DNA from: a virus
Length of the DNA stretch: 22,190 nucleotides
Reading direction: 5' to 3' (one strand)
IMG/VR virus record: IMGVR_UViG_3300044641_004353
Location: 1-22,190 of that record
The position numbers were made by a program, and so were the translations under genes. Positions 1 through 17,388 of the stretch are shown piece after piece (position 1 is the stretch's first letter; each line of letters begins with the position of its first letter). Below the pieces are notes generated by a model, which worked only from the letters and a program-made list of their open reading frames with translations, had not been told where the DNA came from and did no database searches.

Positions 1-546
1 AGGATCAGACCAAACATCGCTAAATGCTGATGCATCAAGCACTCGATAGCAATCGACAATTACAAAATCGTCAACCTTTACATCTTTATCCCATTTCATA
101 TCAACATAAAGACGATTGTTATGTCGATTGAAACGAATTGGTTTGCTACCAACAAATATCTGCTCTAGTTCTTCAATATGTCTCATACCCATAACATAGG
201 GTACGTATGTTGTGCTAGAAAAGTCAAACAGATCGTTTAGATGAATCTGATATCTAACGTTGAAGAGGTTAGAAACGCTGGTTGCTCGCCCAATATCAAA
301 TATGCGAATCACATAATTGATATCTTCTGGAAGAGTGATGTACTTGTTATCAACATCTGTCTGAGTAATCTTGTACGACAGATAGACATGCTCAGTGCCA
401 TCAAAGTGAAAATCACGATAATATGCAAGAGCATCGTCGATGCGATCTTCAACCTGACCGTCATCGACGTTGATATCAATAACAGGAAAACCTAGTCTGC
501 GAAGACAGTAATCCTTGAACAGCTTACGTGTTGTTGGTACAGCCAT
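1..546 (-). CDS. 13: Neck protein, T4 gp13-like (3' end cut by window edge)
   Basis: This gene was read directly from the minus strand. ATG lies at 544-546 and the frame is open for all 182 codons to base 1, so the C-terminus lies outside the window. A strong Shine-Dalgarno GGAGG sits 5 nt before the ATG. The translation starts MAVPTTRKLFKDYCLRRLG and continues with INVDDGQVEDRIDDALAYY, then a region with FNRHNNRLYVDMKWD near residues 140-155. I recognise this pattern from neck (head-completion) proteins of T4-like marine phages, usually labelled gp13. These proteins sit at the head-tail junction and act with gp14. The position after the fibre genes agrees with T4, where 13 follows 12 and wac. 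A late-promoter octamer lies 22 nt upstream. The alternative is gp14; the neck role is surer than the number. Confidence 0.75.
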   Translation of the reverse strand, partial: MAVPTTRKLFKDYCLRRLGFPVIDINVDDGQVEDRIDDALAYYRDFHFDGTEHVYLSYKITQTDVDNKYITLPEDINYVIRIFDIGRATSVSNLFNVRYQIHLNDLFDFSSTTYVPYVMGMRHIEELEQIFVGSKPIRFNRHNNRLYVDMKWDKDVKVDDFVIVDCYRVLDASAFSDVWSDP

Positions 547-568
547 TCTAACCTCCAAACTGCTTGGC

Positions 569-1413: not shown

Positions 1414-1421
1414 TATTTAGA
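1414..1421 (-). promoter_or_regulatory. Candidate degenerate late promoter before the lysis pair
   Basis: The minus strand reads TCTAAATA, one mismatch from the T4 late octamer TATAAATA. It overlaps the stop of the methyltransferase-like gene and lies 54 nt before the ATG at 1359. That is farther than at the exact sites in this window, so it is a weak call. The 57-nt gap between the two genes shows no clear hairpin terminator. Confidence 0.3.
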
Positions 1422-2061
1422 TTCTTGCCACTACTACAGATGTTATGAATTTAAATGTATCTTGATTATTTACACCCCATACACTATTATATTGTTTAGC
1501 GAAAAATACATCACTACAAGTTATTTGCGATCTAAGATCATCAGCATTATAGATGGGGTTCCCATATCTCATTTTCATATTACTTGTACCAGATACAGAA
1601 ACTAATGTCCCCTTAGGTAAATTTGGCAATAGTTCATCAAATGGTAGAAGCATGTTTATTGAGGGTACTATTATAATATTACTATTATTTGTATACCTCA
1701 TGATATCATCAAAAACCACATTTTTTCTTTCATATGTAACATTAATATTTGAATATAATTGTTTTATTGTTTGACCTATAGTTATAACTGATCTATCATG
1801 ATCTAGCATTGTTATATTTTTTATCTTACCTGAAATACTTAATACTTCTAAAAGAGTAAGTGAAAACCAAGATGCCAATACAATAACATTATCATTATCG
1901 CCGATATTATCAGAGATTACACAAGCTGATTCATATTCTGGTAATGAATAAGTTTTTGATATGCTATTTCGTATTATTTTAGTAAAGGGCCCAGGGTATT
2001 GAGACATAAGATAGCTTGCCTTATCATTAACGCCTATTTTAATTTCATCATATGTCATCAT
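1417..2061 (-). CDS. Class I SAM methyltransferase-like protein
   Basis: The protein is 214 aa from the ATG at 2061. That start has GGGAAAG about 3-5 nt upstream. The longer ATG at 2100 has no Shine-Dalgarno and would overlap the preceding gene by 53 nt, against 14 nt here. A Rossmann-like half follows the usual order: a beta strand NVIVLASWFS at about residues 58-67, a helix, then ITMLDHD at about 83-89, where the acidic residue would bind the SAM ribose. A later strand NIIIVPSINM (about 128-137) is followed by LPKGTLVSVSG. Similar proteins occur among late genes of T4-like marine phages. The usual glycine motif (GxGxG) is absent and LASWFS stands in its place, so catalysis is uncertain. Base composition is AT-rich, like the neighbouring glycosyltransferases. 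Confidence 0.6.
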   Translation of the reverse strand: MMTYDEIKIGVNDKASYLMSQYPGPFTKIIRNSISKTYSLPEYESACVISDNIGDNDNVIVLASWFSLTLLEVLSISGKIKNITMLDHDRSVITIGQTIKQLYSNINVTYERKNVVFDDIMRYTNNSNIIIVPSINMLLPFDELLPNLPKGTLVSVSGTSNMKMRYGNPIYNADDLRSQITCSDVFFAKQYNSVWGVNNQDTFKFITSVVVARI

Positions 2062-2785
2062 GACTTTCCCACAATTGTTTGACCCAACCCTTAACCTCAT
2101 TCAAATCAAAACCAACACCATGAGAATTATTGAATAGACATATTTTATAATCTTCGCGGTATTTGCCTACACTGATATCATCAGGCCAAGATGCACCAGC
2201 ATTATAGGTATAGACTAAATTTCTTGGGTGATATGAATATTTACCCTCTTGTAAATAAAATAGAGAATGATCTAAGCTCCAGTATATTTTTGAAATTTTA
2301 GCCATATTTTGTTTATAGAATTCAAATATGTGATTTGCTTGATTGCCTTGCCATGTCACAAATGATGAGTTTATTGCGCAATAATTGTGTCCATAATGCG
2401 TAATAATTGCTTCAGGTGAAGCCCAATAATTATAGATTAATCTAAATTCAGTAAAACATTCATCAAGATAATTTGTAATATTACCATGTATTAAGATATC
2501 CAAATCTAATAGAACATAAGGCCCTTGACAATCTAAGAACCCGTCTTTAAATGAGCTTAATTTTTCTATGGTAAACATACTTTCTGAAGTACCACGAAAT
2601 TCGCTCAATTCATCAATATTATTGATAATAACTTCTCTTCTAATGTCAGTTGGGTCATCAGTTATACAATGAAAATAAAATGATTTATTATAATTGCGCT
2701 GAATCATTGAATATAAACGATTCACATAAACGGCTGGGTATTTTGACCCCCATTTGTAGCATATAAATCTAATTAAATTATTCAT
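2048..2785 (-). CDS. Putative GT-A glycosyltransferase
   Basis: This 245-aa protein has the layout of a GT-A nucleotide-sugar transferase. An N-terminal alpha/beta part contains FHCITDD (about 38-44). A hydrophobic strand then runs into the DLD motif at 94-96, which in this fold binds the metal and sugar nucleotide. Next come AINSSFVTWQG (137-147) and a late Asp at 172. The inverted neighbour at 2799-3422 has DLD, NSS and W-G in the same order, so the two look like paralogues. ATG at 2785 has GAGGG upstream inside a palindrome shared with that neighbour. Known GT-A enzymes transfer sugars from NDP-sugars; the acceptor here is unknown. The coding region is AT-rich. No signal peptide or membrane anchor is seen. 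Confidence 0.65.
   Translation of the reverse strand: MNNLIRFICYKWGSKYPAVYVNRLYSMIQRNYNKSFYFHCITDDPTDIRREVIINNIDELSEFRGTSESMFTIEKLSSFKDGFLDCQGPYVLLDLDILIHGNITNYLDECFTEFRLIYNYWASPEAIITHYGHNYCAINSSFVTWQGNQANHIFEFYKQNMAKISKIYWSLDHSLFYLQEGKYSYHPRNLVYTYNAGASWPDDISVGKYREDYKICLFNNSHGVGFDLNEVKGWVKQLWESHDDI
2762..2769 (+). promoter_or_regulatory. Possible late promoter for the inverted gene
   Basis: The plus strand reads TATAAATC, one mismatch (last base) from TATAAATA, and ends 29 nt before the plus-strand ATG at 2799. It lies inside the start of the minus-strand glycosyltransferase. The region is AT-rich, so a chance match is quite possible. Confidence 0.3.
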
Positions 2786-2786
2786 T

Positions 2787-2796
2787 AGGGTACCCT
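2787..2796. promoter_or_regulatory. Shared palindromic Shine-Dalgarno of two divergent genes
   Basis: The 10-bp perfect palindrome AGGGTACCCT fills most of the 13-nt gap between two divergent ATGs. On the plus strand AGGG ends 8 nt before the ATG at 2799. On the minus strand AGGG ends 7 nt before the ATG at 2785. One symmetrical site thus supplies a ribosome-binding site to both transcripts. Confidence 0.7.
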
Positions 2797-2798
2797 CA

Positions 2799-3422
2799 AT
2801 GTATCATCTTTATACAATATTAGTTAGACCAAAATATGATGTAAGCTTTGTTAAAGCAATACATGAATCATTTAGAAAAAATATATCATCCTCATTTGTA
2901 CATACTTGTCTAACCGACAATATCGAACAATTTGAAAATGAAAACTTTTGCAATTTAATCGATATAAGTCATCATAATCTCCCAACATTTTGGAATAAAA
3001 TGTTATTCTTCAAAAAAGATGAGATATGCAAAAATAACGAAAAGTGTATCTTTTTCGATCTAGATTCTATGATACTAAAAGATTTAACACCTATGTTACA
3101 TCATGTAAATGATTTCTTATTAGTAGGGCAAAACCCAAATAAAATTATTGACATTTATTTAACAAAAGCTATGAATAGCCCAGAACATGGTAGACATTTA
3201 ACTATATTGAATTCATCGTGCATGATGTGGTACGGTGGTCAACATCATGCACTGTGGGAAAAATTTGATGTCAATCGAGAAGATAATATGCTATACTACT
3301 ACGGTAACGATGAGTTTATAACATTCGAATATCAATCAAATTATAAACTCATCGATAGGAAATGGGTCTTTGGCGCAGGGTCTGAAAAAACTGCAATATA
3401 TTCTAATAAAATTAGATATTAG
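2799..3422 (+). CDS. Putative glycosyltransferase, the only plus-strand gene
   Basis: This 207-aa protein carries the same skeleton as its divergent neighbour: HTCLTD (35-40), a hydrophobic strand into DLD (87-89), LNSSCMMWYGG (137-147) and an acidic C-terminal segment. This points to a GT-A fold using an NDP-sugar and a divalent metal. It is the only gene on the plus strand. Its start is 13 nt from the neighbour's start, and its stop TAG overlaps the stop of the convergent oxygenase gene (shared bases TTAG, 3419-3422). Composition is very AT-rich; the line from 2821 to 2880 counts 15 G+C in 60. Read-through from either side would give antisense RNA. Acceptor and donor are unknown. It is shorter than typical GT-A enzymes and may need a partner. 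Confidence 0.65.
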   Translation: MYHLYTILVRPKYDVSFVKAIHESFRKNISSSFVHTCLTDNIEQFENENFCNLIDISHHNLPTFWNKMLFFKKDEICKNNEKCIFFDLDSMILKDLTPMLHHVNDFLLVGQNPNKIIDIYLTKAMNSPEHGRHLTILNSSCMMWYGGQHHALWEKFDVNREDNMLYYYGNDEFITFEYQSNYKLIDRKWVFGAGSEKTAIYSNKIRY

Positions 3423-4060
3423 GGTGACCCAATTTCGTCTACCATATTGTCCCAAATATTCTTGTCATAAATTATGTAACTAAGAGTTACCCGATCACAG
3501 TCTGTGCGTGCTGCGTGCCAATAAACTTTATCTGGTTCGCTAAAGGGCCCAAAATACCCAACCTTAATATTCCAACCAGGGTTATCCTTATATTCTGTAA
3601 TTTCTTTTGTCTTCAGATCGTAGGAATAAAATGCACCATCACCTGTCTTACTATAAGACATGATGATATTATAGCCTGGAGCATTACCATTATTATGCCA
3701 ACCTATAAAACCTTGAGATGGGTAGTACATCTTTAGTGCATTATTTCTTGCGCCAAGAAATGAAATTAGATCATCATCAAGTTTTCTAAGAACTGGAGCA
3801 AAATGTTTGGGTAGAGGTTTTTCTGTTGGGTATGGGTTCATGTCTATCCCATAACTGTCTCTAGGGAAACCAAATCGATCCGGTGTTGGTAGAGCGTCCT
3901 CAAGATACTGACGCTCTGTGCATTCAATGTAGCTTAATTGCTTCTTAAAATCATCTCGGCGATTGATAGTTAGTACAGATAAATCTTGCTTAAAAAACCA
4001 ATCGATGAAATTATCTAAGATCGATAGAAGATCCGGATTGATCTTTGATAGCGTGTGCAT
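3419..4060 (-). CDS. 2OG-Fe(II) oxygenase-like protein
   Basis: This 213-aa protein ends in a double-stranded beta-helix region with the marks of 2-oxoglutarate/Fe(II) oxygenases. These are FIGWHNNGNAPGYNI (118-132, first His H122), a strand-rich middle, then VYWHAARTDCDRVTLSY (179-195), with the second His at 182 and the 2OG-binding Arg at 190. The usual HxD carboxylate is replaced by HNN. Related marine-phage proteins that I recall show a similar H-x-N, so this may be a family trait and not a defect. Members hydroxylate proteins, lipids or small molecules; the substrate here is unknown. The ATG at 4060 has a purine-rich GGGAGCAGG upstream and overlaps the previous gene by 50 nt. The gene converges tail-to-tail with the plus-strand glycosyltransferase. 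Confidence 0.65.
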   Translation of the reverse strand: MHTLSKINPDLLSILDNFIDWFFKQDLSVLTINRRDDFKKQLSYIECTERQYLEDALPTPDRFGFPRDSYGIDMNPYPTEKPLPKHFAPVLRKLDDDLISFLGARNNALKMYYPSQGFIGWHNNGNAPGYNIIMSYSKTGDGAFYSYDLKTKEITEYKDNPGWNIKVGYFGPFSEPDKVYWHAARTDCDRVTLSYIIYDKNIWDNMVDEIGSP

Positions 4061-4769
4061 TAACCTGCTCCCTAGGTATAGTATAATGATAAACCACTAT
4101 CGGTTTATCGGTTTCACTCTCTTTATATACCCAGATAAAATTCCATCTTGCATCATCTGGTAATACTGTCACTTTAATTGATGGGTCTTCTTTCAATAGT
4201 CGCCAAAAAGTAAACTGATCCCATGGCTTCATTTTAGGGTCGTATTCTGGGTATGGCCATGGGTTAGCTGTAGTTTGTAATTGATATTCGCTCCACCATT
4301 TTCTCATAAATTCTAAATTTTTTTCAGTCTTGCGGTATAGAAACATACCGCAATGATGAATCATATTTTCTGTATCATTAACTTTAGTACCTTTACCCGC
4401 ATACTCTCTGATATTTGTTATTGCGATATCATTATTACCAATAAAATCAAATATCTGAGAAATATCTTCATGCCATATTTCGGTATCACAATCGAGATAC
4501 AGAGTAATATCATATGGGGTTTTATCAAGTGCCCATAACTTGGCTCTGTAATGAACTGGTATACCGGTAATTACGTTTTCAAAAAGAAAACGATCTTTAT
4601 CGTCAATGAAATCACTATGCGTGAATAAAGTTATTCTAGCATCGGGGTAATGATCTTTAATTGATACAGCGCATCTGATTGCTGCCTTATAATAGGCAAC
4701 CGACACAGATGCAATTAAGATGATACCTCTACTAGTATCAACCTTCTGTTGTTTGGTTTGCCTGGGCAT
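4011..4769 (-). CDS. Putative GT-A glycosyltransferase
   Basis: The protein is 252 aa from the ATG at 4769. Upstream in-frame TTG at 4805 would overlap the previous gene much further, whereas the ATG has AAAAGG about 7 nt before it. It begins with a GT-A type strand GIILIASVS. It then shows helix AAIRCAVSIKDHYPDARITL, the nucleotide-sugar/metal motif LYLDCDTEI (DCD about 93-95), and IHHCGMFLYRK followed by a WW pair and PWDQFTFW. These are features of the glycosyltransferase-8/DUF616-like group of phage and bacterial enzymes. It is more diverged from the two DLD proteins than they are from each other. Its likely role is adding a sugar to a virion or host glycan. The acceptor cannot be read from sequence. 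Confidence 0.65.
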   Translation of the reverse strand: MPRQTKQQKVDTSRGIILIASVSVAYYKAAIRCAVSIKDHYPDARITLFTHSDFIDDKDRFLFENVITGIPVHYRAKLWALDKTPYDITLYLDCDTEIWHEDISQIFDFIGNNDIAITNIREYAGKGTKVNDTENMIHHCGMFLYRKTEKNLEFMRKWWSEYQLQTTANPWPYPEYDPKMKPWDQFTFWRLLKEDPSIKVTVLPDDARWNFIWVYKESETDKPIVVYHYTIPREQVNAHAIKDQSGSSIDLR

Positions 4770-5199
4770 CCGCAGCCTTTTCAATGCTATAAGATTCTGA
4801 AGCAATCAATGATGCTAAAACTGTAACTTCGATAATTGAAGTTGCTTTTCTAAGACGCGACTTAAGCTTAGTATTTGTAGAATTTCTTACAAGATCAATT
4901 TCAAATGCATCGCTCTTTGCCATAAAAAGAGCTTCGCGCCGCATATTATCTACACGTCTCTGATCGTCCATCTCGCGCTTAAGTCGATTTTCTTCATGAA
5001 CTCTGACTTTAGCCGCAGTATTCTCATCAATTTGCTCAGGTGTAAAGTTTGCAAATATCTCATCCCAATCAGGGTTACCCTCATCGGTTTGAGATACTGA
5101 TGCGGTTACTATACCACCATCAACATACTTGAATTTACATACTACTTGATTTTTTAGATTTGAAGACCAATATGGGTCTAAAATTTGTCTTTCGCTCAT
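4738..5199 (-). CDS. Conserved hypothetical protein downstream of the fibre
   Basis: This 153-aa protein has an N-terminal beta-rich part (NQVVCKFKYVDGGIVTASVS, about 17-36), an acidic segment and then a long charged helix (about 62-100, many Arg/Glu). After that come a helical pair and a polar tail. I recall proteins of this layout beside fibre genes in T4-like marine phages, but no function is known to me. Its place, 1 nt after the tetrapeptide fibre stop, would suit a fibre chaperone or attachment factor; that is inference. The ATG at 5199 has AAGGA about 10 nt upstream. The C-terminal 32 nt overlap the following glycosyltransferase. Confidence 0.6.
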   Translation of the reverse strand: MSERQILDPYWSSNLKNQVVCKFKYVDGGIVTASVSQTDEGNPDWDEIFANFTPEQIDENTAAKVRVHEENRLKREMDDQRRVDNMRREALFMAKSDAFEIDLVRNSTNTKLKSRLRKATSIIEVTVLASLIASESYSIEKAADAQANQTTEG

Positions 5200-5200
5200 T

Positions 5201-6313
5201 TTATGCTGTCCTTACCCAAAGACTGACATTTGTTACTGTCTCTAGCGAGGCCTGAATGGTTGCGCCCGTATAGAATCCTGTGTAGTTACCAGTATAACTA
5301 CCAGTAAACCCACTAGAATATGTACCAGAATAAAACCCTGTAAAGTTCCCAGTATAGAACCCCGTATAGAATCCTGTGAAGAACCCTGTATAGAACCCAG
5401 TAAAGTTGCCGCCAAATCTACCAGCAAAGAAGAGTGCGTAAGTTCCCGCAAATGCTTGCGATCTAAATCTAGTATACGCACCAGCAAATGCGGTAGAATA
5501 TGTACCAGCATAACTTCCCGTAAAGTTACCAGTATATGTACCAGAATAAAACCCAGTATATGTACCGGAATAACTTTGATCCGAACGTATATTTCTGGTA
5601 TCATCAAATGCCGCACCAACAGTGGTCCAAGTACCGGGAGTTGGTGCAGTTGCTTGAAGTCTATACGTACCAATACCAGTCGCTATGATTCTATTTCTCA
5701 TACGATTGGTTAGTGAACGAATTTCTGCATCTGTCATCTGTTGCACAGATTTTGTCGGGCTTGTTTGATACTTTAGTGGGCGTATTGTAGTGGGTGCAGT
5801 TGCGTCTGTTCTACGCCATAAAGTTGAAGTGTTTGTCCCTGCACTGGTTGTATTTGTAATTGTACCTATTGATGTCCAAGTTCCAACAGGTGATGATGGT
5901 TGTAAAGAATATGATCCAACACCACCAGCAACTAATGTGCTTAGTGCCCTAGAAATAATAGAATCATTTAACTGTGTATCATTTTGCTGTCTAACACCAG
6001 TTGAAGAATATTCTACTGGTCTAGTTAATGATTCTGTTGCGCTTGTTGTAATATCTTGCTTAAGAGTATATGTTACCGAATCAATCGTTGTGCCGACCGG
6101 GTGTGCACCCACAGAAAAAGGTCTATTTGTATCAACAAAGGTACCAATTGATGTGCCTGTTGCACCATCAACATTTACTGTACCCAACCCACTGTTAGTT
6201 GAAGCAAAATCTTTAAGAATAACATCGACAGCATAATCCATTTCCGAAGTGGTCATCGTCTGAAGACCTTGGAATGTAGCCCCTGATGATTTAACTCTTA
6301 ATGGGTTGGCCAT
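5201..6313 (-). CDS. Fibre-like protein with aromatic tetrapeptide repeat
   Basis: This 370-aa protein has two clear parts. Residues 5-240 hold three divergent copies of one module. They begin near 5, 98 and 178, each with R-(P)-(V/L) K/E-Y/S, then a Q-rich helix start, GxGTY/GLGTV and GTWTxxG or GTSxxG. Residues 247-350 are 26 consecutive tetrapeptides of the form x-[Y/F]-[T/S/A]-G without a phase break. Position 2 is Tyr or Phe in 25 of 26, and position 4 is Gly in 21. A 20-residue tail ends SLWVRTA. Repetitive, Thr/Gly/aromatic-rich proteins at this position are typical of tail fibres, so host contact is the likely role. The ATG at 6313 has GAGGA about 6 nt upstream. I cannot name a family for the repeat. 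Confidence 0.65.
   Translation of the reverse strand: MANPLRVKSSGATFQGLQTMTTSEMDYAVDVILKDFASTNSGLGTVNVDGATGTSIGTFVDTNRPFSVGAHPVGTTIDSVTYTLKQDITTSATESLTRPVEYSSTGVRQQNDTQLNDSIISRALSTLVAGGVGSYSLQPSSPVGTWTSIGTITNTTSAGTNTSTLWRRTDATAPTTIRPLKYQTSPTKSVQQMTDAEIRSLTNRMRNRIIATGIGTYRLQATAPTPGTWTTVGAAFDDTRNIRSDQSYSGTYTGFYSGTYTGNFTGSYAGTYSTAFAGAYTRFRSQAFAGTYALFFAGRFGGNFTGFYTGFFTGFYTGFYTGNFTGFYSGTYSSGFTGSYTGNYTGFYTGATIQASLETVTNVSLWVRTA
5264..5575 (-). repeat. 12-nt period coding repeat (26 units)
   Basis: Twenty-six contiguous 12-bp units encode the tetrapeptides x-[Y/F]-[T/S/A]-G at residues 247-350 of the fibre-like protein. Codons vary between units, so the protein pattern is kept better than the DNA. 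The middle units (about residues 271-298) are the most diverged. Confidence 0.9.
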
Positions 6314-6900: not shown

Positions 6901-7119
6901 TTATGACTGTCCCTTGGACCCGAGTATCTGTCTTAGCAGGTCCTTAATCTCAGCGACATCCTGCTTCAAATTATTTATCTCGTCTAATTTATCCTGTTCG
7001 CGCTTTCTTCTGGCACGATATGCTTCAAGCCCGGAATTGTCAGTAGAGATAATGGCCTGGCATGCTTTATCCTTTACATACCCAGGCTCATTTTCTATCT
7101 TTACTAATTCAGGTTTCAT
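6901..7119 (-). CDS. Small coiled-coil protein
   Basis: This 72-aa protein has an N-terminal segment LVKIENEPGYVKDKACQAII (5-24), a polybasic stretch RARRKREQDKL (about 35-45) and a C-terminal heptad-like helix INNLKQDVAEIKDLLRQIL (48-66). Its start overlaps the stop of the giant structural gene in an ATGA, so translation is probably coupled. Its stop touches the ATG of the fibre gene. Small proteins like this sit at the same place in other T4-like marine phages, where the N-terminal part is well kept. A role in fibre assembly or as a trimerising adaptor fits the context, but nothing in the sequence proves it. Confidence 0.65.
   Translation of the reverse strand: MKPELVKIENEPGYVKDKACQAIISTDNSGLEAYRARRKREQDKLDEINNLKQDVAEIKDLLRQILGSKGQS
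6972..6979 (-). promoter_or_regulatory. Possible intragenic late promoter before the short fibre gene
   Basis: The minus strand reads GATAAATA, an exact late octamer, inside the 72-aa gene and 71 nt upstream of the next ATG (6900). The spacing is longer than the 21-22 nt seen elsewhere, so it may be a chance product of the coding sequence. Confidence 0.35.
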
Positions 7120-10100
7120 CGTTGTAGCGCAATCACTCTAATATCATCAAGACGTGGTGGGTTTGTTGTGGTAGAGTTTGTAAGCACTACCTTAATCGAT
7201 AGGTACTTATAACCAACAAACCGCGATCTTGCAGAATTTCGATATTCAATGATATTTGCATTAGTTGTGTTTGCACCAGACAATACCGCATTGCTATAAT
7301 TTGGTACAACAAAAACATATTCTTTAAAGTCATCAACAATATCTGTACTAGAGAATACAGTTGATGATGTAAACCCTGTTTCTGTCGTATATGACATTGG
7401 GATCCAACGCGCATTATCAAACGTATCGCTATCTTCACGATGCAGAATCTTATAGTATACGTTTATGTTAGACCCAGGTGGGCGATATGCGCTAACATAT
7501 ACGCGGATATCTTCTGCATCCTGACCATCTGCAAGAGTCATCTTACGGGTAATATATTTTGCTAGAGCATTACCACCACTTGCTGTATTGGCTTCACCTG
7601 TGGTATCATTATTAATGAGATTTTGAACCGTAATGGCTGAAATTCTCTTGACATCAAGAACGGGTGACGCATATCTGCTAGTGCTAGTGAATAGTGCTCT
7701 AACTTCAGCGGAACGACCCGCAGCCATAGATGCACCACTAATTGATGTATTTGATTCCATGCTGCGGCTTAGAATATATCTTGGTGCGGTAAATTCGGTA
7801 TCAGCATTTACATTCAAGTCAAAATAGTTTGAATCCCTTGATGTATTGCTTGTAGCAAATTTACCTGAGAATCGAATATTCGTATTCGTTGGAGTTAAGA
7901 AGTCAGAAGAAATATTGATTATATCGGCCTGCAAACGATCAAGTCTAACTATGCGAGCAATATAACCATTAGTTTGACCTCTAATCCAGTTATTTGCAAA
8001 GAATACCCGACCTGCGCCCGATGCAGGGCCGCTATTTGTAAATGACACATTAGCTAGATGCAGATAGGTATTTGCAAAGGATACTGAATCATAGTAAATT
8101 GCTTTACCAGTTGGTGTTGTCGCAGATGTAATACCACCAGTTGAATTACCAACTATTATACCAGTTGTTGAATTTGTATTGCGAATGCGAATCCGCTCTC
8201 CGCCCACAAATTTAGTATTCAGAGATACATTTCTTACTCTAAGCTGTGTAGAGCTAAAGCGAGAGATTGTTCCTGTTGCACCAGATGTCATACCTTGAAC
8301 GAAGGTGACACCAGTATTTACTGCCTTAGTATTAGCAAATGTACCAACAAGAATCGTCTCGCCGTGAATATCTTCACCCGTGCGAATAAATGCGGCTGAT
8401 ACATTTGCAATCTGATAATAATCTCTTAGCTCATTCTTAAATATTACTGTGCCTGTTGTTGAGGTATTAAAGTTTGCCACATAAAGGGTAAACTTTAGAT
8501 CCTCTTCCTGAATTGGGCTATACACAATATCATTTGATGATGCTGATAGAATACCAGCGGCCGGCTGCGATGAAATTCTGTTACCAGTAATTCTATCAAC
8601 CTCACCAAGACGAGCAATGTGCATATTATAATTTGGATTGCTACCAACCGGCTTTATCACGATAGCGTAATCGCGTGCATTTTGCAGATATACAGGCGAT
8701 GGGAAATATACAGGTGTTGGTGCAGAACCATTATCACTTGTATTAATTTCGCCAGGCTGTAGAATTACGCGACTAAACGGAATCATGCGACCAGTAATGG
8801 TATTTGTTATAGGATCGATTGCACGAATATGGATTTCACAACCAATTTGTGTATCTTTGGTAGCAAAGAATAGATCAACCTTTGTTACAAATGCACCAGA
8901 CCCTGATATCTTACCAATAGCATTAGTATCCATGGTAAATGATTGAGCAATTGGGTCAATAATTGTCTGATTGACAGCAATTGTATTTCTAGTATCTAAA
9001 ACAGATTCGGAAACAGTCTCACCTGTTCTGGTGCTTATGATTGTATTTTGTACATCTTGCGTAAGACCTTCAGCCGTATATACAGATTCGGCCGATGTTA
9101 AAAATGTACCTTGTGTGGTATCATTTGTGGGTGAGTCCGTTAGTCTAAAAATGCGGCTACCAGTTCTAAATCTCATATTTTCATTAGATGGAAGACGGAA
9201 TATACCATACACATTACCATTTGCTACGGAAACAAGCCGTCCGCCCTCATTTGCAGTATTTGCAAATGAAGCATTGGTTGGGGTTACATATTGAGAAACA
9301 GGTGTGCCGTCAAAAAATGGATAAATTCTAGATGTAGGTTTAATACCTCTGCCTATAAATCTAATCGAACGTGATCTCATAAAAGGCTGGATATTTGAAC
9401 TTACAACTCTATTACCTGTGCTAGTTGTAGTGGTTACAGGGACTAGTGATGTGCGTGTCCCGCTTCTAACCTGACTTGATGTTGTTGTTGTCGTTACTCT
9501 AAATGCTTGAGCAACACCAAGGAATTGTCTATCAACAGTAGTTGATTGAGCAACAGTTTGCCAATCACCCCATGTTGTACCCCATGCTCCACTTTGCTCC
9601 CAATTATCATCAAAATTATCAATATTAACAAGAACATCGGGAAGCTGAACAGTATCCACCCAGTAGTCCGAAGGTGGATCTAGAGTAACGCTACCATTCC
9701 ATTTCCAGAATAGACCTGCGGCATTTCTTGTTGTAGAATTATAGGGCTGGCTCACAAAAACTTCGTGACTATATGGCAGGGTTATAATTTCACCAGCAGA
9801 TGGCAGATACACACCTGAAATTGTCGATGAAACAGGGCCGCTAGAAATTGTTGATGTTGTAACAAAATTACCTGTTGCATTTTCAACATACAACTTATTG
9901 CCGACTTTAAATCTTAGTGTTGCTGTTGTTCCACCAGAACTTACTGTAGAACCATTTGCAAAAGCTGATGCTGAGTTGGCAATAAACACTATCTGATCAC
10001 GTGCAACACCTGCTGACGTAACATTGGTACGCACAATATTAGATGAATTTGCTGCATTATAAAAGAGTTCAATATTATCAAGTTTAAACGGAGGTCTTGC

Positions 10101-13100
10101 CTCACCATAATTGGAATCAATTGAAATCTTATAATCCGAATTCTTTACATCACCAACATTATGGCCATAGAAAGGATCTACAAGGATACCGTTTTTAAAT
10201 CTATTATTACCAGAAGAATCTTGAATAAGAAGATTTTTAGTATCCATTTCAAGTAGATTTAAAGTAGTATAATATTCAAGATTCTCAATTCTATCGCGTA
10301 AAACCCCAATATCTCTCATTGTAAAGCGAGGATTTTTTACAGGAAATACTCTAGAAGCTAAATCGCCTCTATTAACTCTGCGTGCTTGCTCATCCGCAAG
10401 AGACGGATATGGTGAAAGATTTATAGTCGCAATTGACATAGTATCTTTCGACTCATCCGGTGTAATCGGATTAAGTGATGGTACGCCCTTTACAGCAGTA
10501 AAATTACCATCACGATCAAGAACAATTCTATCATTTCGGAGTAGATAATAATCAAGATCGGCAGTAAAGTTTTCACCTGGAGCCATAAATCTCAGACCAC
10601 CTGACGGCTGATCAAAGGTGGTTGAAAGTCTTGGATTAATTGATATATTGGTAAGTGATGTAACACCATTTGCGGTATCCGTCATACGAGGACGAATATC
10701 AATACAATCTCTCAGGTCAAATCTATTACCAGTCCGTGATGAGGTATAGACAGGAATTTCATATGTAAATATTTTTGTGGTATCGGTTGCAGCATTTGTA
10801 TCATCGACTGGGTAAGAATCGACAGAAAAATATCCAACACCAGTTGAATAGCTATGAGTAAAGTGATCAAGAGTAACTAGAAGTCGATCACCTGTTGACA
10901 GAGAAATGCCGCTACCAGACTTACGCACAAGACGAGCATGACTATAAAAGTCATCAAGCATCCCAGTATCAAGGGTAAAGTTATTTGTTACATCTGTACC
11001 TTCGGTAAGAGACGCAAAGTTTGACCCAGACTTTCTACGAACAGACACTAGTTTGAAACCGTCAGATAGACCAAGTGGCCATGGCCCGGTGGTGTTTGCA
11101 ACATAAGATGTGCCACCACCCGCACCAATTCTAACTTGTACGCGACGATTTCTATTAACTGTCTTTGCGGCCTCTTGCCCATCAACCTTATTCAGCTCCG
11201 TAATTACGGTAGCATTTAGTGATGATCCAAGAGTTTCTTGAAGATTAAAATCTGTCTGTGTCGATGATGACACGGTAATTGTTCTTGCAGATCCAGTTGA
11301 ACCAGAGCCACCAAAATCTAATACCTGACCTTGACGAATAAGCTTGTGAACTCGCATTCCGGTGCGAGTAGCGCCGGCCGTAGTCAGAGTGTTTAGAGAT
11401 GCCGAAGAAACAGATGTAACAATAAAGTCACCAGTGTTTGCCACGCGAATTAGTTCGCCTGCACTAAATCTAGTAGTTAGATCGATTGCGCTATTAGAAC
11501 GGGTTATTGTATTTGATCCGTTTGTTGTGCTAAGTCTTAGCGTGCTAATTGCTCCGGTATTAGACGAGCCGCGTGCTGTAATATAATAATTTGAGCGACC
11601 TATAGCGGTTGATAGCGCACCACTACCTGAGAATGTCTCGCTAGCTGTACCAGTTGATACAGATGCAGTACCACCGGTACCAAATGTAATATCAAAGGAT
11701 TTTTCAAATCTAAAATTATTATCAACGTTACCTGTTGTATCTCTTAGTCGTCTAATTGCATTAGCAGGAAGACGGAAGATGGCAATATCAAATGATGGGT
11801 CTGTTGTATTTGCATTTCTACCGTTTGACCCGAGAATATCGGCTTTACCGTTAGCCTGACCAGCGCCAGCACTAAACATGATTGACTGAGCATTGGCAAA
11901 ACCAAACCCGGCATTCATATTAATATCTGTCAGATATACCCTATATTGTGCTGAAGGGAGACCCGGCGTTCCTGCATGATATTCAATTGCACGAACTCTT
12001 GCGGTACCAATCTCAGAACCAGAGAATGAAGTGAGAGAATAATTTCTGGTTGAAATTGCATTGGCCTGCTGCGATCTAAGGCTGACTCTACCCTGAGCAT
12101 TTACATCCCAAGAACCAACAACATTGTCCGCTATGACATAATTACCATAATCAATTAAAGCACTAGCTTGCTCAACTGAATTATAATCGGTTGCTTTGTC
12201 AATTGGTATGCGCTTACTTTGTAAAAGTTCAATATCAAACCCCTGAACATATGATTTTCCTGGGTTTACTTCAACAACCAACTTAGATGCGCTTCCACCC
12301 TCTCCCGCAGTAAAGACACCCTGGTTATTACCAGTCAATAGATGCTCACGAAGTCTAGGTGAAAGACCACTTACAATATAATTACCAGATTCATCATAAG
12401 TTCTTTGAGCAATATAATCCTTAAGAAGATTGTATTGCGGAGAATCTGAGCGTGATTGAATCTCACCACCCTTAAGCTGAATTAGCTCAATAAAATTATT
12501 GCTAGCTGTTGCATTAGTATCAATGCGAGTAAATTGCGCCGTTAGCTTAAGGCGCGCCGCCCCTGGTGCGGCAAAGTTATAAGCACCTGATGCAGGATCA
12601 AGTAGAGTTGAATCATCGGCTTCTTTAACAATAGTCTCGATTACATTGTAACCAATACGTGCCGACCCATTTGAGCTATATTTTGATATAACAAGAAGAT
12701 CGGGATCGGTTCGAATGAAATGATCCTTAGCATAAATTACGCCTTCATTAATTTTCATTAGGGCCGAATAGCCTGTGGCACCAGATGAAATTAGATTGGC
12801 TGTTAGGCCACCACCACCGGTTGCGGTAATAACTTCGCCGTTAGCAAATGAACGGCGATTGCTATTACCACCAGTAAATTTGACAAATAAAGTTTTAAAA
12901 TTTGGTGTATTTGCTTCTGATCCATCATTTACTTTAATGACGCTAGCTGACACACCAGATGTTGCACCAGTTACGGTTCTATTCAAAAATGCATAGACAT
13001 TTACTGAAGTAGTACCATTTGAAGCTGCATCGCGCAACTTCATATAAACTACATCTTTGTCTAGAAGGGTTTGGCAGCCTCTTACGATACTACCTTCTTT

Positions 13101-13292
13101 AAAAATATGCTCGGCAAAACGATCAATCTGATTTTGTAGAATTGACTGAATCTGTGTAAGCTCGCGCGCTTGAACGGCAAGCCCAGGGCGAAACAGAATG
13201 CGATGAAAATTCTTTGACTCATTAAAATCATCATAATACGGGTCAACATTTAGATCCGTAGAAATCGTGACGGTGTTAGCAATAGACGCCAT
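7116..13292 (-). CDS. Giant baseplate/tail structural protein, DUF4815-like
   Basis: This 2058-aa protein starts with a conserved helix-rich segment, FRPGLAVQARELTQIQSI (about 34-51) and EHIFKEGSIVRG (61-72), which I associate with DUF4815-type phage structural proteins. A beta-module with SGVSASV and FANGEVI follows at about 104-170. The central part has many Thr/Ser/Asn-rich beta stretches. Near the middle are RSRSIRFIGRGIKPTSRIYP and FFDGTPVSQYVTP. Later come VDLFFATKDTQIGCEIHIR and the FPSPVYL element. Such giant proteins are virion components of T4-like marine phages. It lies after gp8 where T4 has gp9-gp12, suggesting the baseplate periphery and fibre attachment. No tape-measure-like long coiled coil is seen. 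ATG at 13292 lies 15 nt after gp8; its Shine-Dalgarno AAGGGA is distant. Confidence 0.75.
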   Translation of the reverse strand: MASIANTVTISTDLNVDPYYDDFNESKNFHRILFRPGLAVQARELTQIQSILQNQIDRFAEHIFKEGSIVRGCQTLLDKDVVYMKLRDAASNGTTSVNVYAFLNRTVTGATSGVSASVIKVNDGSEANTPNFKTLFVKFTGGNSNRRSFANGEVITATGGGGLTANLISSGATGYSALMKINEGVIYAKDHFIRTDPDLLVISKYSSNGSARIGYNVIETIVKEADDSTLLDPASGAYNFAAPGAARLKLTAQFTRIDTNATASNNFIELIQLKGGEIQSRSDSPQYNLLKDYIAQRTYDESGNYIVSGLSPRLREHLLTGNNQGVFTAGEGGSASKLVVEVNPGKSYVQGFDIELLQSKRIPIDKATDYNSVEQASALIDYGNYVIADNVVGSWDVNAQGRVSLRSQQANAISTRNYSLTSFSGSEIGTARVRAIEYHAGTPGLPSAQYRVYLTDINMNAGFGFANAQSIMFSAGAGQANGKADILGSNGRNANTTDPSFDIAIFRLPANAIRRLRDTTGNVDNNFRFEKSFDITFGTGGTASVSTGTASETFSGSGALSTAIGRSNYYITARGSSNTGAISTLRLSTTNGSNTITRSNSAIDLTTRFSAGELIRVANTGDFIVTSVSSASLNTLTTAGATRTGMRVHKLIRQGQVLDFGGSGSTGSARTITVSSSTQTDFNLQETLGSSLNATVITELNKVDGQEAAKTVNRNRRVQVRIGAGGGTSYVANTTGPWPLGLSDGFKLVSVRRKSGSNFASLTEGTDVTNNFTLDTGMLDDFYSHARLVRKSGSGISLSTGDRLLVTLDHFTHSYSTGVGYFSVDSYPVDDTNAATDTTKIFTYEIPVYTSSRTGNRFDLRDCIDIRPRMTDTANGVTSLTNISINPRLSTTFDQPSGGLRFMAPGENFTADLDYYLLRNDRIVLDRDGNFTAVKGVPSLNPITPDESKDTMSIATINLSPYPSLADEQARRVNRGDLASRVFPVKNPRFTMRDIGVLRDRIENLEYYTTLNLLEMDTKNLLIQDSSGNNRFKNGILVDPFYGHNVGDVKNSDYKISIDSNYGEARPPFKLDNIELFYNAANSSNIVRTNVTSAGVARDQIVFIANSASAFANGSTVSSGGTTATLRFKVGNKLYVENATGNFVTTSTISSGPVSSTISGVYLPSAGEIITLPYSHEVFVSQPYNSTTRNAAGLFWKWNGSVTLDPPSDYWVDTVQLPDVLVNIDNFDDNWEQSGAWGTTWGDWQTVAQSTTVDRQFLGVAQAFRVTTTTTSSQVRSGTRTSLVPVTTTTSTGNRVVSSNIQPFMRSRSIRFIGRGIKPTSRIYPFFDGTPVSQYVTPTNASFANTANEGGRLVSVANGNVYGIFRLPSNENMRFRTGSRIFRLTDSPTNDTTQGTFLTSAESVYTAEGLTQDVQNTIISTRTGETVSESVLDTRNTIAVNQTIIDPIAQSFTMDTNAIGKISGSGAFVTKVDLFFATKDTQIGCEIHIRAIDPITNTITGRMIPFSRVILQPGEINTSDNGSAPTPVYFPSPVYLQNARDYAIVIKPVGSNPNYNMHIARLGEVDRITGNRISSQPAAGILSASSNDIVYSPIQEEDLKFTLYVANFNTSTTGTVIFKNELRDYYQIANVSAAFIRTGEDIHGETILVGTFANTKAVNTGVTFVQGMTSGATGTISRFSSTQLRVRNVSLNTKFVGGERIRIRNTNSTTGIIVGNSTGGITSATTPTGKAIYYDSVSFANTYLHLANVSFTNSGPASGAGRVFFANNWIRGQTNGYIARIVRLDRLQADIINISSDFLTPTNTNIRFSGKFATSNTSRDSNYFDLNVNADTEFTAPRYILSRSMESNTSISGASMAAGRSAEVRALFTSTSRYASPVLDVKRISAITVQNLINNDTTGEANTASGGNALAKYITRKMTLADGQDAEDIRVYVSAYRPPGSNINVYYKILHREDSDTFDNARWIPMSYTTETGFTSSTVFSSTDIVDDFKEYVFVVPNYSNAVLSGANTTNANIIEYRNSARSRFVGYKYLSIKVVLTNSTTTNPPRLDDIRVIALQR

Positions 13293-14910: not shown

Positions 14911-17388
14911 CTAAGTTGACCTTTGGTAAGTATAAACTATATCGGATGCTGTACCCACAATAAACATTTTCTTTTGATCTGTGCTTAGTGCAATACCGTG
15001 TGGTGCAGATTCTTGAGCACCAATACTTAAACTCTTATTATCATATGTTGCTGTAGAAATATCCCAAGCTGTTGATAGTGTATATTGATAAACCGTGTCA
15101 TTAGTGCTACCAGCAACAAGCACTTTCTTACCATCACTACTAAATGCCATTGCAAGTGGGCTGTTTTCTTGTGATGCTACCGATAAGAATTTAGACGCAT
15201 ATGTTGCTGTAGAAACATCCCAGGGTGATGATAGTGTATATTGAAATATTCTATCATTTGTAGAACCAAGAATATACATCTTGGTGCCATCATCACTAAA
15301 GGCTAGTGATTGCGGGTTGGTGTCTTGGGCAGATACGTCTTTGCTCTTAGATGCATATGTTGCTGTAGAAACATCCCATGCCGTAGAAAGTGAATACTGA
15401 TAAACGGTATCTCTATCAATACCAACAATATACATTGTATGACCTTCAGGGTGAAACTGAACCTCGCGGGGGTCTTTATCACCGGGGCCAGCATTTGACG
15501 TATTTGCAATCGATATACTTTTATTCATATAAGTTGCTGTTGATACGTCAAATGACGTTGATAATTTATATTGATATACTCTGTCATTATTTAAACCCAT
15601 AATATACATTCGTCTACCCGATGGACTAAATGTCAGACCTGTAGGTTGAGAATCTTGCGAAATAAACACGTTTGCTGATCTTAGCGTTGCTTTATCAACA
15701 CTTAATGTAATTGGTAAAATTGCTTCTTGATTATAAAGAATATTATGATTGTGTGATAGATTTGTATTAGATACAAATTGATAGCTACCAAACATCTTGG
15801 AGCCTGATGGGTGCAACACTCTCTTGACAACATCTCTATATCGATCTACAATTTCAGTAACCTTAATCAGATATGAATATTCTTGATAGAAATCATTATC
15901 TTGTAGTCTCATATTCCAGCTAAGGAATCCTTTGGTATCAATATAACGTCCTGGCTGAGTTATAACGCCCGCAATAATAGGTTTAATATCAGCATTATAT
16001 GTTGTATTTCTAATGGTAAATCGTTGATTACCACCCAAGTCAGTATTTTGATCTATTGTTGGCCCAGTGCCGCGAGAATTGACTACAATAGCATCAGCAA
16101 ATTTATCAAATGATGCATCAGATGATACTATCTCTAGGCCTGTAATTGCACCAGGTGCACGTATTGCGATGATAACAGCATCATCACCCTTAAGTCTACC
16201 AGCCTCACCAGCAAGTCCTTGCTCAAATACAATTTGATCGCGCGCCACTACGGTTGGGAGTTCAGGAACATAACCACTACCAACACTAGTGACAGAAATA
16301 GCATTAATTGTACCAGCAACGGAGTTTGAAAAGTGCAAAGATGATGCTAACGTTGATGATATATTGGCAACTGCTAAGTTTGCAAACACAGCAGCCGTAT
16401 TAGTACCAAGAGACACAAAAGTAGGGCCCGTATTAAGAAGTACGTTTGATAGCGGACCAATTTGATCTGTGTTTAAGCTAACAAATGTGGTATTAGATAG
16501 GGAAGATACTATTGCAGCCGCACCCGTTCCAGACCCACCATTTACTGATATTACGGTTTGCCCTAAACGATAACCGCTACCACCTCTATTGATACGAAAT
16601 GATACAGGCCCTCGATCATTTGTTGATGATACTCTTGCCGACGCAGTAGCACCGGATGATGTTATTACAACAGCATCACCAGATTGATGGAATGCCCCCG
16701 GGTCGACAACTTCTTCAATACCAATCAAGCTACCAAATGCTGAAGTAATTGTTGCATTGTTGCCTAAATCATCCGATACTGTTTCACCATCAACAAATGT
16801 ACCGACAACATTTTCAACAAGTAGTTCAAATAATGGGTGACCAAGAACAACTACGCGAGTAACCTTTTGTACTCTGGCCGTAGCACCTGAAACAGAGCCG
16901 ACAATATTTCTACCATCAAGATTTGTCGGTAATGTTGAATATGGGTTACCAACTCTAAGAATTGTTTCTCTCACCCATCTACCATCAGACGCTCTTAGAA
17001 TGTAATCGCCTGGGTAAACAAGTTCTATCTGCTTATTGAATAGTGCATAGAACAGAAAATCATATGAAAATTTTGACCCTCTAGTTCTATAGAAATCTCT
17101 GATATGCTTGACTAGTAATCTTTTGTCAGCCAAAACATCCTTGGGGATGTTTATCATAAACTCTCGACGAAAATATTCAACAAATGAATCTAGTGTTCGG
17201 TCTATATCTTGATAGTCAATCAAGCTGCGAGTCGCATTACCCGCCTGCCCAGACTGCTCCATAAATTCGTAATACGCTTTTAAGAACGAAACAAATCTGG
17301 GTCCTTCTTCGCGTATGAACGCAGGAAACTGCGACTCAATGAGCGGAGATAATTTTACGAAGGTTTCTTCGGCGCCTGATATTGCCAT
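14911..17388 (-). CDS. Baseplate wedge-type protein at gp7 position, with C-terminal propeller
   Basis: This 825-aa protein begins with a helical domain: LSPLIESQFPAFIREEGPRF (13-32), then YYEFMEQSG and HIRDFYRTRGSKFSYDFLFY (95-114). That start is conserved in the protein found between gp6 and gp8 of T4-like marine phages. The middle is beta-rich, with a VSGATAR...FVDGETV module at about 164-217 and more SGATASARVSS-type stretches. Residues 580-825 are five repeats, about 52 residues each, of the form S-P-x-x-x-F-S-x-D-G-x-x-M-Y-I-x-G, DxVYQYxLS and WDVSTATY; the last is truncated. This looks like a beta-propeller. T4 gp7 (1032 aa) links the wedge to its periphery, and position suggests the same job. 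Sequence alone does not show homology to gp7. The start lies 1 nt after the gp6 stop. Confidence 0.75.
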   Translation of the reverse strand: MAISGAEETFVKLSPLIESQFPAFIREEGPRFVSFLKAYYEFMEQSGQAGNATRSLIDYQDIDRTLDSFVEYFRREFMINIPKDVLADKRLLVKHIRDFYRTRGSKFSYDFLFYALFNKQIELVYPGDYILRASDGRWVRETILRVGNPYSTLPTNLDGRNIVGSVSGATARVQKVTRVVVLGHPLFELLVENVVGTFVDGETVSDDLGNNATITSAFGSLIGIEEVVDPGAFHQSGDAVVITSSGATASARVSSTNDRGPVSFRINRGGSGYRLGQTVISVNGGSGTGAAAIVSSLSNTTFVSLNTDQIGPLSNVLLNTGPTFVSLGTNTAAVFANLAVANISSTLASSLHFSNSVAGTINAISVTSVGSGYVPELPTVVARDQIVFEQGLAGEAGRLKGDDAVIIAIRAPGAITGLEIVSSDASFDKFADAIVVNSRGTGPTIDQNTDLGGNQRFTIRNTTYNADIKPIIAGVITQPGRYIDTKGFLSWNMRLQDNDFYQEYSYLIKVTEIVDRYRDVVKRVLHPSGSKMFGSYQFVSNTNLSHNHNILYNQEAILPITLSVDKATLRSANVFISQDSQPTGLTFSPSGRRMYIMGLNNDRVYQYKLSTSFDVSTATYMNKSISIANTSNAGPGDKDPREVQFHPEGHTMYIVGIDRDTVYQYSLSTAWDVSTATYASKSKDVSAQDTNPQSLAFSDDGTKMYILGSTNDRIFQYTLSSPWDVSTATYASKFLSVASQENSPLAMAFSSDGKKVLVAGSTNDTVYQYTLSTAWDISTATYDNKSLSIGAQESAPHGIALSTDQKKMFIVGTASDIVYTYQRST
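14914..15651 (-). repeat. Five tandem propeller repeats, 156-nt period
   Basis: The repeats encode residues 580-825 of the 825-aa protein. The unit length is 58, 52, 52, 52 and 32 residues; the first has an insertion rich in Asn and Gly. The DNA period of 156 nt is visible as the recurring plus-strand string atgttgctgtagaaa near 15046, 15202 and 15358. Confidence 0.85.

What the first reader, a model, noticed from the sequence alone, without database searches (positions are those of the whole stretch)
1417..4769. AT-rich modification island between fibres and lysis genes
Three GT-A-like glycosyltransferases, a 2OG-Fe(II) oxygenase-like protein and a methyltransferase-like protein sit together between fibre genes and the holin. 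Sampled composition drops to 15 G+C of 60 (2821-2880) against 25 of 60 in the giant structural gene (10921-10980). The island could decorate the virion, for example the Thr/Tyr-rich fibre repeat next door, or alter host surface glycans. A set of hydroxylation, glycosylation and methylation enzymes beside a hydroxyl-rich fibre is an attractive candidate system.
Basis: inference. Interest (0 to 1): 0.75.

Follow-up and report, generated by a model that had tools for sequence, protein, structure and literature searches.

The report
Phage fibre with its modifying enzymes
A repetitive, tyrosine-rich phage fibre gene travels with a helper gene, a sugar-transferring enzyme and an unusual oxygenase, which suggests that many uncultured aquatic phages chemically finish their own fibres.

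Summary
It is not one uniform island. Its left half (GTc, GTb, MT; 29-31% G+C) is accessory cargo. Its right half (GTa, OXY; 36-38%) belongs with the two genes upstream, in a four-gene module: aromatic tetrapeptide-repeat fibre, small chaperone-like protein, glycogenin-like GT-A enzyme (GTa), 2OG-oxygenase-fold protein (OXY). Three separate searches (by oxygenase, by glycosyltransferase, by repeat DNA) find the module together. Of 76 newly fetched GTa-selected loci, 75 carry OXY. Of 32 evaluable repeat-selected loci, 31 carry chaperone, GTa and OXY. At one syntenic site in sister phages the table is 9 both, 27 neither, 0 mixed. All 129 distinct OXY sequences have W-H-x-N where 2OG oxygenases normally have HxD/E. 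AlphaFold models put OXY among protein hydroxylases and GTa next to glycogenin, a tyrosine glucosyltransferase. Best reading: OXY and GTa mature the repeat of their own fibre. Linkage is shown; chemistry, substrate residue and virion location are inferred. Against it: OXY paralogues exist away from fibres, three modules have fibres without the repeat, and OXY's missing carboxylate leaves its activity open.

The parts
5201..6313 (-). FIB: fibre-like protein (370 aa) with a C-terminal [Y/F]-[T/S/A]-G-x tetrapeptide repeat (about residues 246-353); proposed substrate
   Evidence: translation; repeat DNA pattern 6 matches in window, 0 in 100 shuffles; repeat fibre just upstream of GTa in 72 of 75 evaluable GTa-selected loci
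4738..5199 (-). CHAP: small conserved protein (153 aa), proposed fibre chaperone (inferred from position only)
   Evidence: no informative PHROG hit
4011..4769 (-). GTa: GT-A glycosyltransferase, glycogenin-like (GT8-type) fold; D93, D95, D184, Q185, H228 invariant in 42 rows
   Evidence: AF2 pLDDT 92.4; glycogenin-1 3t7n Z 17.7, rmsd 3.3, 189 aligned; Foldseek E 3.2e-10; invariants
3419..4060 (-). OXY: 2OG-Fe(II)-oxygenase-fold protein with H122-x-N124 ... H182 ... R190 in place of HxD/E ... H ... R
   Evidence: AF2 pLDDT 94.2; top matches 2OG oxygenases, best PHD2 3oui Z 10.3; 129 of 129 distinct sequences W-H-x-N
2799..3422 (+). GTc: accessory glycosyltransferase-like protein on the opposite strand
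   Evidence: phrog_1962 E 2.8e-5; hhalign to GTb E 9.7e-15; 14 of 14 close relatives
2048..2785 (-). GTb: accessory glycosyltransferase-like protein
   Evidence: phrog_1962 E 0.0028; invariant DLD 94-96; 14 of 14 close relatives
1417..2061 (-). MT: methyltransferase-like protein, assignment unverified
   Evidence: alignment A4; Pfam UbiE 0.043 in 1 of 9 members; 14 of 14 close relatives
7116..13292 (-). VrlC-like giant baseplate protein marking one border of the host-recognition site (not part of the module)
   Evidence: tblastn to records annotated VrlC/VlrC; phrog_358
1..558 (-). Neck protein (gp14-like) marking the other border (not part of the module)
   Evidence: 97.8% identical to the L002 homologue, which matches annotated neck proteins

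Best explanation
FIB, CHAP, GTa and OXY form a fibre-maturation module. CHAP helps fold the fibre (inferred). OXY, a peptide-hydroxylase-like 2OG oxygenase without the usual iron-binding carboxylate, oxidises side chains in the [Y/F]xGx repeat. GTa, a glycogenin-like enzyme, puts sugar on the repeat, either on the residue made by OXY or on the repeat's Tyr/Thr/Ser hydroxyls. The most plausible OXY targets are Asn/Asp at position 4 of the unit (43% of units); the most plausible GTa acceptors are Tyr at position 1 (67%) or Thr at position 2 (44%). GTc, GTb and MT would extend or cap the glycan in the window's own lineage, or serve another purpose. Shown: gene linkage, exclusivity with the repeat, folds, motif. 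Inferred: that the proteins are active, that the fibre is the substrate, which residues, and that the product is in the virion.
For: OXY-selected loci: 67 of 80 carry GTa (60 of 80 GTa+CHAP+repeat); of the 13 without GTa, 11 lie at the tail-tube/uvsY site and 2 (L046, L049) begin within about 2 kb upstream of OXY. GTa-selected: 75 of 76 new loci carry OXY, 71 within 100 bp; of 80 loci, 72 have a fibre with >=5 repeat matches just upstream, 5 are too short, 3 have none. Repeat-selected: 31 of 32 evaluable of 80. Same-site contrast in VrlC-selected loci with >=3.5 kb downstream: 9 repeat+GTa+OXY, 27 neither, 0 mixed (Fisher 1e-8, not corrected for kinship). Nine whole records of 'neither' phages: 0 OXY, 0 GTa, 0 repeats (3, 6). 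In large records the repeats lie only next to the module. The pair stays linked through rearrangement: of 118 distinct loci 109 GTa-OXY adjacent, 4 order swapped, 4 separated, 1 opposite strand. Folds. A 2OG oxygenase without the carboxylate can be active (AspH, PMC10947486 abstract).
Against: OXY paralogues occur away from fibres. Three modules (L149, L160, L167) keep OXY and GTa beside fibres without the repeat; one repeat locus (L232, weak repeat) lacks the module. 27 of the 80 repeat-selected loci had fewer than 5 repeat matches and were set aside; 2 of them (L233, L250) carry the module, the rest do not show it. The HxN motif may mean weak, altered or no catalysis. GT8-like folds also include LPS enzymes such as LgtC. 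Neighbouring genes share history: OXY-GTa distance correlation 0.82 is not far above OXY-neck 0.75. Nothing shows that FIB is in the virion.
Confidence: 0.62

Rival explanations
1. The enzymes remodel the host surface (LPS/O-chain) to block superinfection, and sit beside the fibre because receptor binding and receptor change are co-inherited.
For: The authors who described this site in pelagimyophages read its GT8-type glycosyltransferases as O-chain modifiers (PMC7029224, passages). LgtC, an LPS enzyme, is among GTa's fold matches. GTb/GTc/MT content is variable, as serotype cargo would be.
Against: It does not predict a 2OG oxygenase nearly always paired with GTa, nor exclusivity with one repeat type. 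Sister phages at the same site lack GTa and OXY in 9 of 9 whole records.
Confidence: 0.2
2. GTa glycosylates the fibre, but OXY is a non-catalytic or non-hydroxylating protein (for example scaffold/co-chaperone, or another oxidative chemistry such as halogenation), because its metal-binding carboxylate is replaced by Asn.
For: W-H-x-N in 129 of 129 distinct sequences. Halogenases BesD/HalA (carboxylate-less, recalled) are among the fold matches, Z about 9.5.
Against: H122, N124, H182 and R190 are invariant in 45 rows, which suggests an active site under selection. Carboxylate-less AspH is an active hydroxylase (abstract).
Confidence: 0.2
3. Accessory genes hitchhiking in a hypervariable host-recognition site, without a functional tie to the fibre.
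For: The site is known to be hypervariable (PMC7029224), and close relatives share ancestry.
Against: The GTa-OXY-repeat tie holds from 90% down to about 30% identity and through order swaps. GTc/GTb/MT, which do vary, fit this rival better than GTa/OXY.
Confidence: 0.06

Closest known systems
Host recognition cluster (HRC) of pelagimyophages, between VrlC and gp14 (mSystems 2020, PMC7029224; passages read)
   Same: Same genomic position, fibres plus glycosyltransferases; some members carry a 2OGFeDO protein and lipid genes
   Different: In the passages read, the glycosyltransferases are taken as LPS modifiers and 2OGFeDO as nucleic-acid modifying; I saw no repeat-fibre/GTa/OXY module described
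Mimivirus collagen modification (R699 glucosyltransferase, PMC9546862 abstract; L230 lysyl hydroxylase, search listing and recall)
   Same: Viral 2OG hydroxylase and glycosyltransferase acting on the virus's own kind of repeat protein
   Different: Collagen Gly-x-y and Lys; eukaryotic virus; not shown to be homologous to OXY or GTa
Glycogenin (GT8)
   Same: Closest fold of GTa, DxD and DQ motifs (motif equivalence recalled); glycogenin glucosylates its own tyrosine (recalled)
   Different: About 18% identity over 189 aligned residues; GTa has no known activity
Aspartate/asparagine beta-hydroxylase (AspH)
   Same: Lacks the iron-binding carboxylate yet hydroxylates protein Asn/Asp (PMC10947486 abstract)
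   Different: Gly at that position in AspH (recalled); no sequence match to OXY found
Phage virion glycosylation in mycobacteriophages (PMC11256854 abstract in search listing; wider work recalled)
   Same: Phage-encoded glycosyltransferases proposed to act on a virion protein
   Different: No oxygenase partner and no repeat fibre in what I saw

Membership tests
2OG-Fe(II) oxygenase superfamily | double-stranded beta-helix fold | tested here: met
   AF2 pLDDT 94.2; the 50 listed VIA rows, Z 9.3-10.3, are 2OG-oxygenase-type proteins
2OG-Fe(II) oxygenase superfamily | HxD/E...H iron triad | tested here: not met
   HxN in 129 of 129 distinct sequences; equivalence of N124 to Asp is inferred from strand order, not from coordinates; hhalign to an HxD family gave no alignment of this region
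2OG-Fe(II) oxygenase superfamily | Arg/Lys after the distal His for 2OG | tested here: met
   R190 invariant, 8 residues after H182
2OG-Fe(II) oxygenase superfamily | Fe/2OG-dependent oxidation | not testable with these tools
   no biochemistry
Pfam 2OG-FeII families | Pfam score | tested here: not met
   0 of 48 members hit any 2OG family at E<=0.1
GT8 (glycogenin-like) glycosyltransferases | GT-A fold nearest to GT8 | tested here: met
   glycogenin rows lead with Z up to 17.7, but LARGE1, blood-group transferase and UGGT domains follow within about 2 Z
GT8 (glycogenin-like) glycosyltransferases | DxD, DQ and C-terminal His | tested here: met
   D93, D95, D184, Q185, H228 invariant in 42 rows; equivalence to glycogenin residues recalled
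GT8 (glycogenin-like) glycosyltransferases | family-level sequence match | tested here: inconclusive
   glycogenin-1 profile E 0.03; Pfam Nucleotid_trans in 8 of 43 members, best 3.4e-7
Class I SAM methyltransferases (MT1417) | fold or profile match | tested here: inconclusive

The most novel reading that the evidence does not exclude
A bacteriophage-encoded 'oxidise, then glycosylate' maturation pathway, collagen-like in logic, dedicated to an aromatic tetrapeptide-repeat fibre and run by an undescribed HxN clade of 2OG oxygenases, widespread in uncultured aquatic T4-like phages; GTa may be a glycogenin-like tyrosine glycosyltransferase acting on the Tyr ladder.
Probability: 0.4. Interest if true: 0.85.

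Novelty: new variant of a known kind. Interest (0 to 1): 0.7.

Why it matters
2OG oxygenases are common in marine phages, and their roles are mostly guesses. This gives one clade a concrete, testable substrate: the repeat fibre encoded beside it. It also changes the reading of a glycosyltransferase at the host-recognition site, from host LPS change to modification of the phage's own fibre. A natural 2OG-oxygenase clade that fixed Asn in place of the metal-binding Asp/Glu would itself interest enzymologists.

Tried and rejected
Considered and rejected: one five-enzyme AT-rich system, because linkage and G+C split it in two. Shared ancestry as the only cause of linkage: rejected because the tie survives order swaps and about 30% identity, though kinship is not corrected for. 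HxN as an artefact of my WHNN search pattern: rejected because GTa-selected loci give the same result, 75 of 75 OXYs.

Led nowhere: OXY, GTb, MT profiles against PDB sequences and GTc (one chance-level row); hhalign of OXY against an HxD oxygenase family from sister phages (probability 0.5) and of GTb/GTc against GTa; the mirror-tree correlation is only mildly higher within the module; CHAP against PHROGs. C48C1 has no paper in the library. Paper searches showed no report of a phage fibre/2OG-oxygenase/glycosyltransferase module; only these searches support that, and the library is open-licence PMC only. What I saw of papers: search listings and abstracts, except PMC7029224 and PMC10436341 (passages) and PMC10947486 and PMC9546862 (outline and abstract).
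Full report
What was checked. The window is a 22,190-base uncultivated virus record with T4-like baseplate genes, a VrlC-like giant protein at 7116-13292 (phrog_358) and a gp14-like neck protein at 1-558. The finding therefore lies at the VrlC-to-neck site known in pelagimyophages as the host recognition cluster (PMC7029224, passages read). The AT-rich part is mainly MT, GTb and GTc (28.8-30.6%); GTa and OXY are 35.8 and 38.0%.

What the genes are. GTa (4011-4769) is a GT-A enzyme whose model (pLDDT 92.4) is nearest glycogenin-1 (3t7n, Z 17.7, rmsd 3.3, 189 aligned; Foldseek E 3.2e-10). Glycogenin glucosylates its own tyrosine (established knowledge). OXY (3419-4060) has a confident double-stranded beta-helix model (pLDDT 94.2); the listed structural matches are 2OG-oxygenase-type proteins, including PHD2 (Z 10.3), OGFOD1, Tpa1, a viral collagen prolyl hydroxylase and the halogenases BesD/HalA. 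It matches no Pfam 2OG family (0 of 48 members), so the family looks undescribed in Pfam; 1 of 48 members weakly hits a PHROG named 2OG-Fe(II) oxygenase (E 0.0048). GTb and GTc are related to each other, with weak glycosyltransferase hits and no detectable relation to GTa. MT remains unverified.

The core module. In 14 close relatives (L002-L015) GTa, OXY, GTc, GTb and MT are present in all 14, and the fibre gene in 12 (the contigs of the other two, L003 and L007, begin after it). Beyond these the downstream genes change, but fibre-CHAP-GTa-OXY stays, also in the one deposited phage with relatives of all four, C48C1 (Kyanoviridae; 1 of 50,697 records for GTa and for FIB; the OXY search also hit one unannotated uncultured record over 37% of the protein). 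The tool warns that records very near the window may be left out there. Three ascertainments agree. By OXY: 67 of 80 loci carry GTa. By GTa: 75 of 76 new loci carry OXY, the exception L125 ending at its contig end; of 80 loci, 72 have a fibre with at least 5 repeat matches upstream, 5 are too short, 3 have none. These sets overlap in some contigs and are not corrected for kinship.

Same-site contrast. Loci selected by the VrlC C-terminus (80) with at least 3.5 kb downstream divide into 9 with repeat, GTa and OXY, 27 with none of them, and 0 mixed. The 'none' loci inspected (4) carry Gly-rich fibres with a different small protein. Whole records of nine 'none' phages (57-158 kb) hold no OXY, no GTa and no repeat (3, 6); the tool notes that an empty answer alone shows little, and the positive records for the same queries are. 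Records with the repeat pattern hold it only beside the module; two records with the module (G010, G011) do not match the strict four-unit pattern. Nineteen distinct oxygenases of another, HxD type were found in the VrlC-selected set; two were checked and belong to Pfam 2OG-FeII_Oxy_3.

The repeat and the active site. In 147 repeat proteins (3,147 units) position 1 is Y 67.5/F 32.5%, position 2 T 44%, position 4 N 30, T 15, D 13, S 12% (units by definition have Y/F at 1 and G at 3). All 129 distinct OXYs of at least 190 aa have W-H-x-N, and so do all 75 found through GTa alone. The Asn takes the place of the iron-binding Asp/Glu by strand order; I could not measure it. Human AspH also lacks the carboxylate and is active (PMC10947486 abstract), so loss of the carboxylate does not exclude hydroxylation.

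Mechanism and doubts. The simplest account is that OXY and GTa modify the repeat of the fibre with which they are inherited. Shown: linkage, exclusivity, folds, motif. Inferred: activity, substrate, residues, virion location. Results against: OXY paralogues at the tail-tube/uvsY site and near dnaB, so the OXY family is broader than fibres; three modules without the repeat; LPS enzymes share GTa's fold; neighbouring genes share history. The accessory genes GTc, GTb and MT cannot be assigned to fibre or host surface from these data.

Novelty. Viral hydroxylase-plus-glycosyltransferase modification of a repeat protein is known around mimivirus collagen (PMC9546862 abstract; L230 from a search listing and recall), and phage glycosyltransferases have been proposed to act on a virion protein (PMC11256854 abstract). 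I found no report of this combination for phage fibres in the searches listed. I rate it a new variant of a known kind.

Noticed in passing
L331 7783-13011; L351 12008-16486; L352 12482-18799: Sister phages carry at the same site Gly-rich fibres with another small protein (MNIHYKI...), SGGxDS-type proteins, and, in L331 and L351, a canonical HxD 2OG oxygenase: possibly an alternative fibre-maturation set.
   Followed up: partly
L016 11363-17097 (similar arrangement in L017, L040, L041, L055): Between the module and the next fibre: radical SAM/SPASM, beta-ketoacyl synthase, fatty-acid desaturase and Methyltransf_24 proteins (only L016 tested).
   Followed up: partly
L020 18267-18920 and 40130-40804 (Phage C48C1); records G005, G006: Two further OXY paralogues per genome; in C48C1 one lies between tail-tube and uvsY genes and one near dnaB, suggesting that HxN oxygenases have several targets.
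   Followed up: partly
window 14911-17388: Baseplate-wedge-like protein whose C-terminal part has repeated 'TKMYILGSTNDRIFQYTLSSPWDVSTATY'-type units, propeller-like by eye.
   Followed up: no
window 2799-3422: GTc lies on the strand opposite to its neighbours, with the same arrangement in the 14 close relatives.
   Followed up: no
L247: A weakly scoring OXY-like ORF (76 bits) beside a 379-aa protein with four repeat matches: maybe a more distant version of the pair.
   Followed up: no
L149, L160, L167: Modules with order OXY-GTa whose fibres lack the [YF]xGx repeat.
   Followed up: partly
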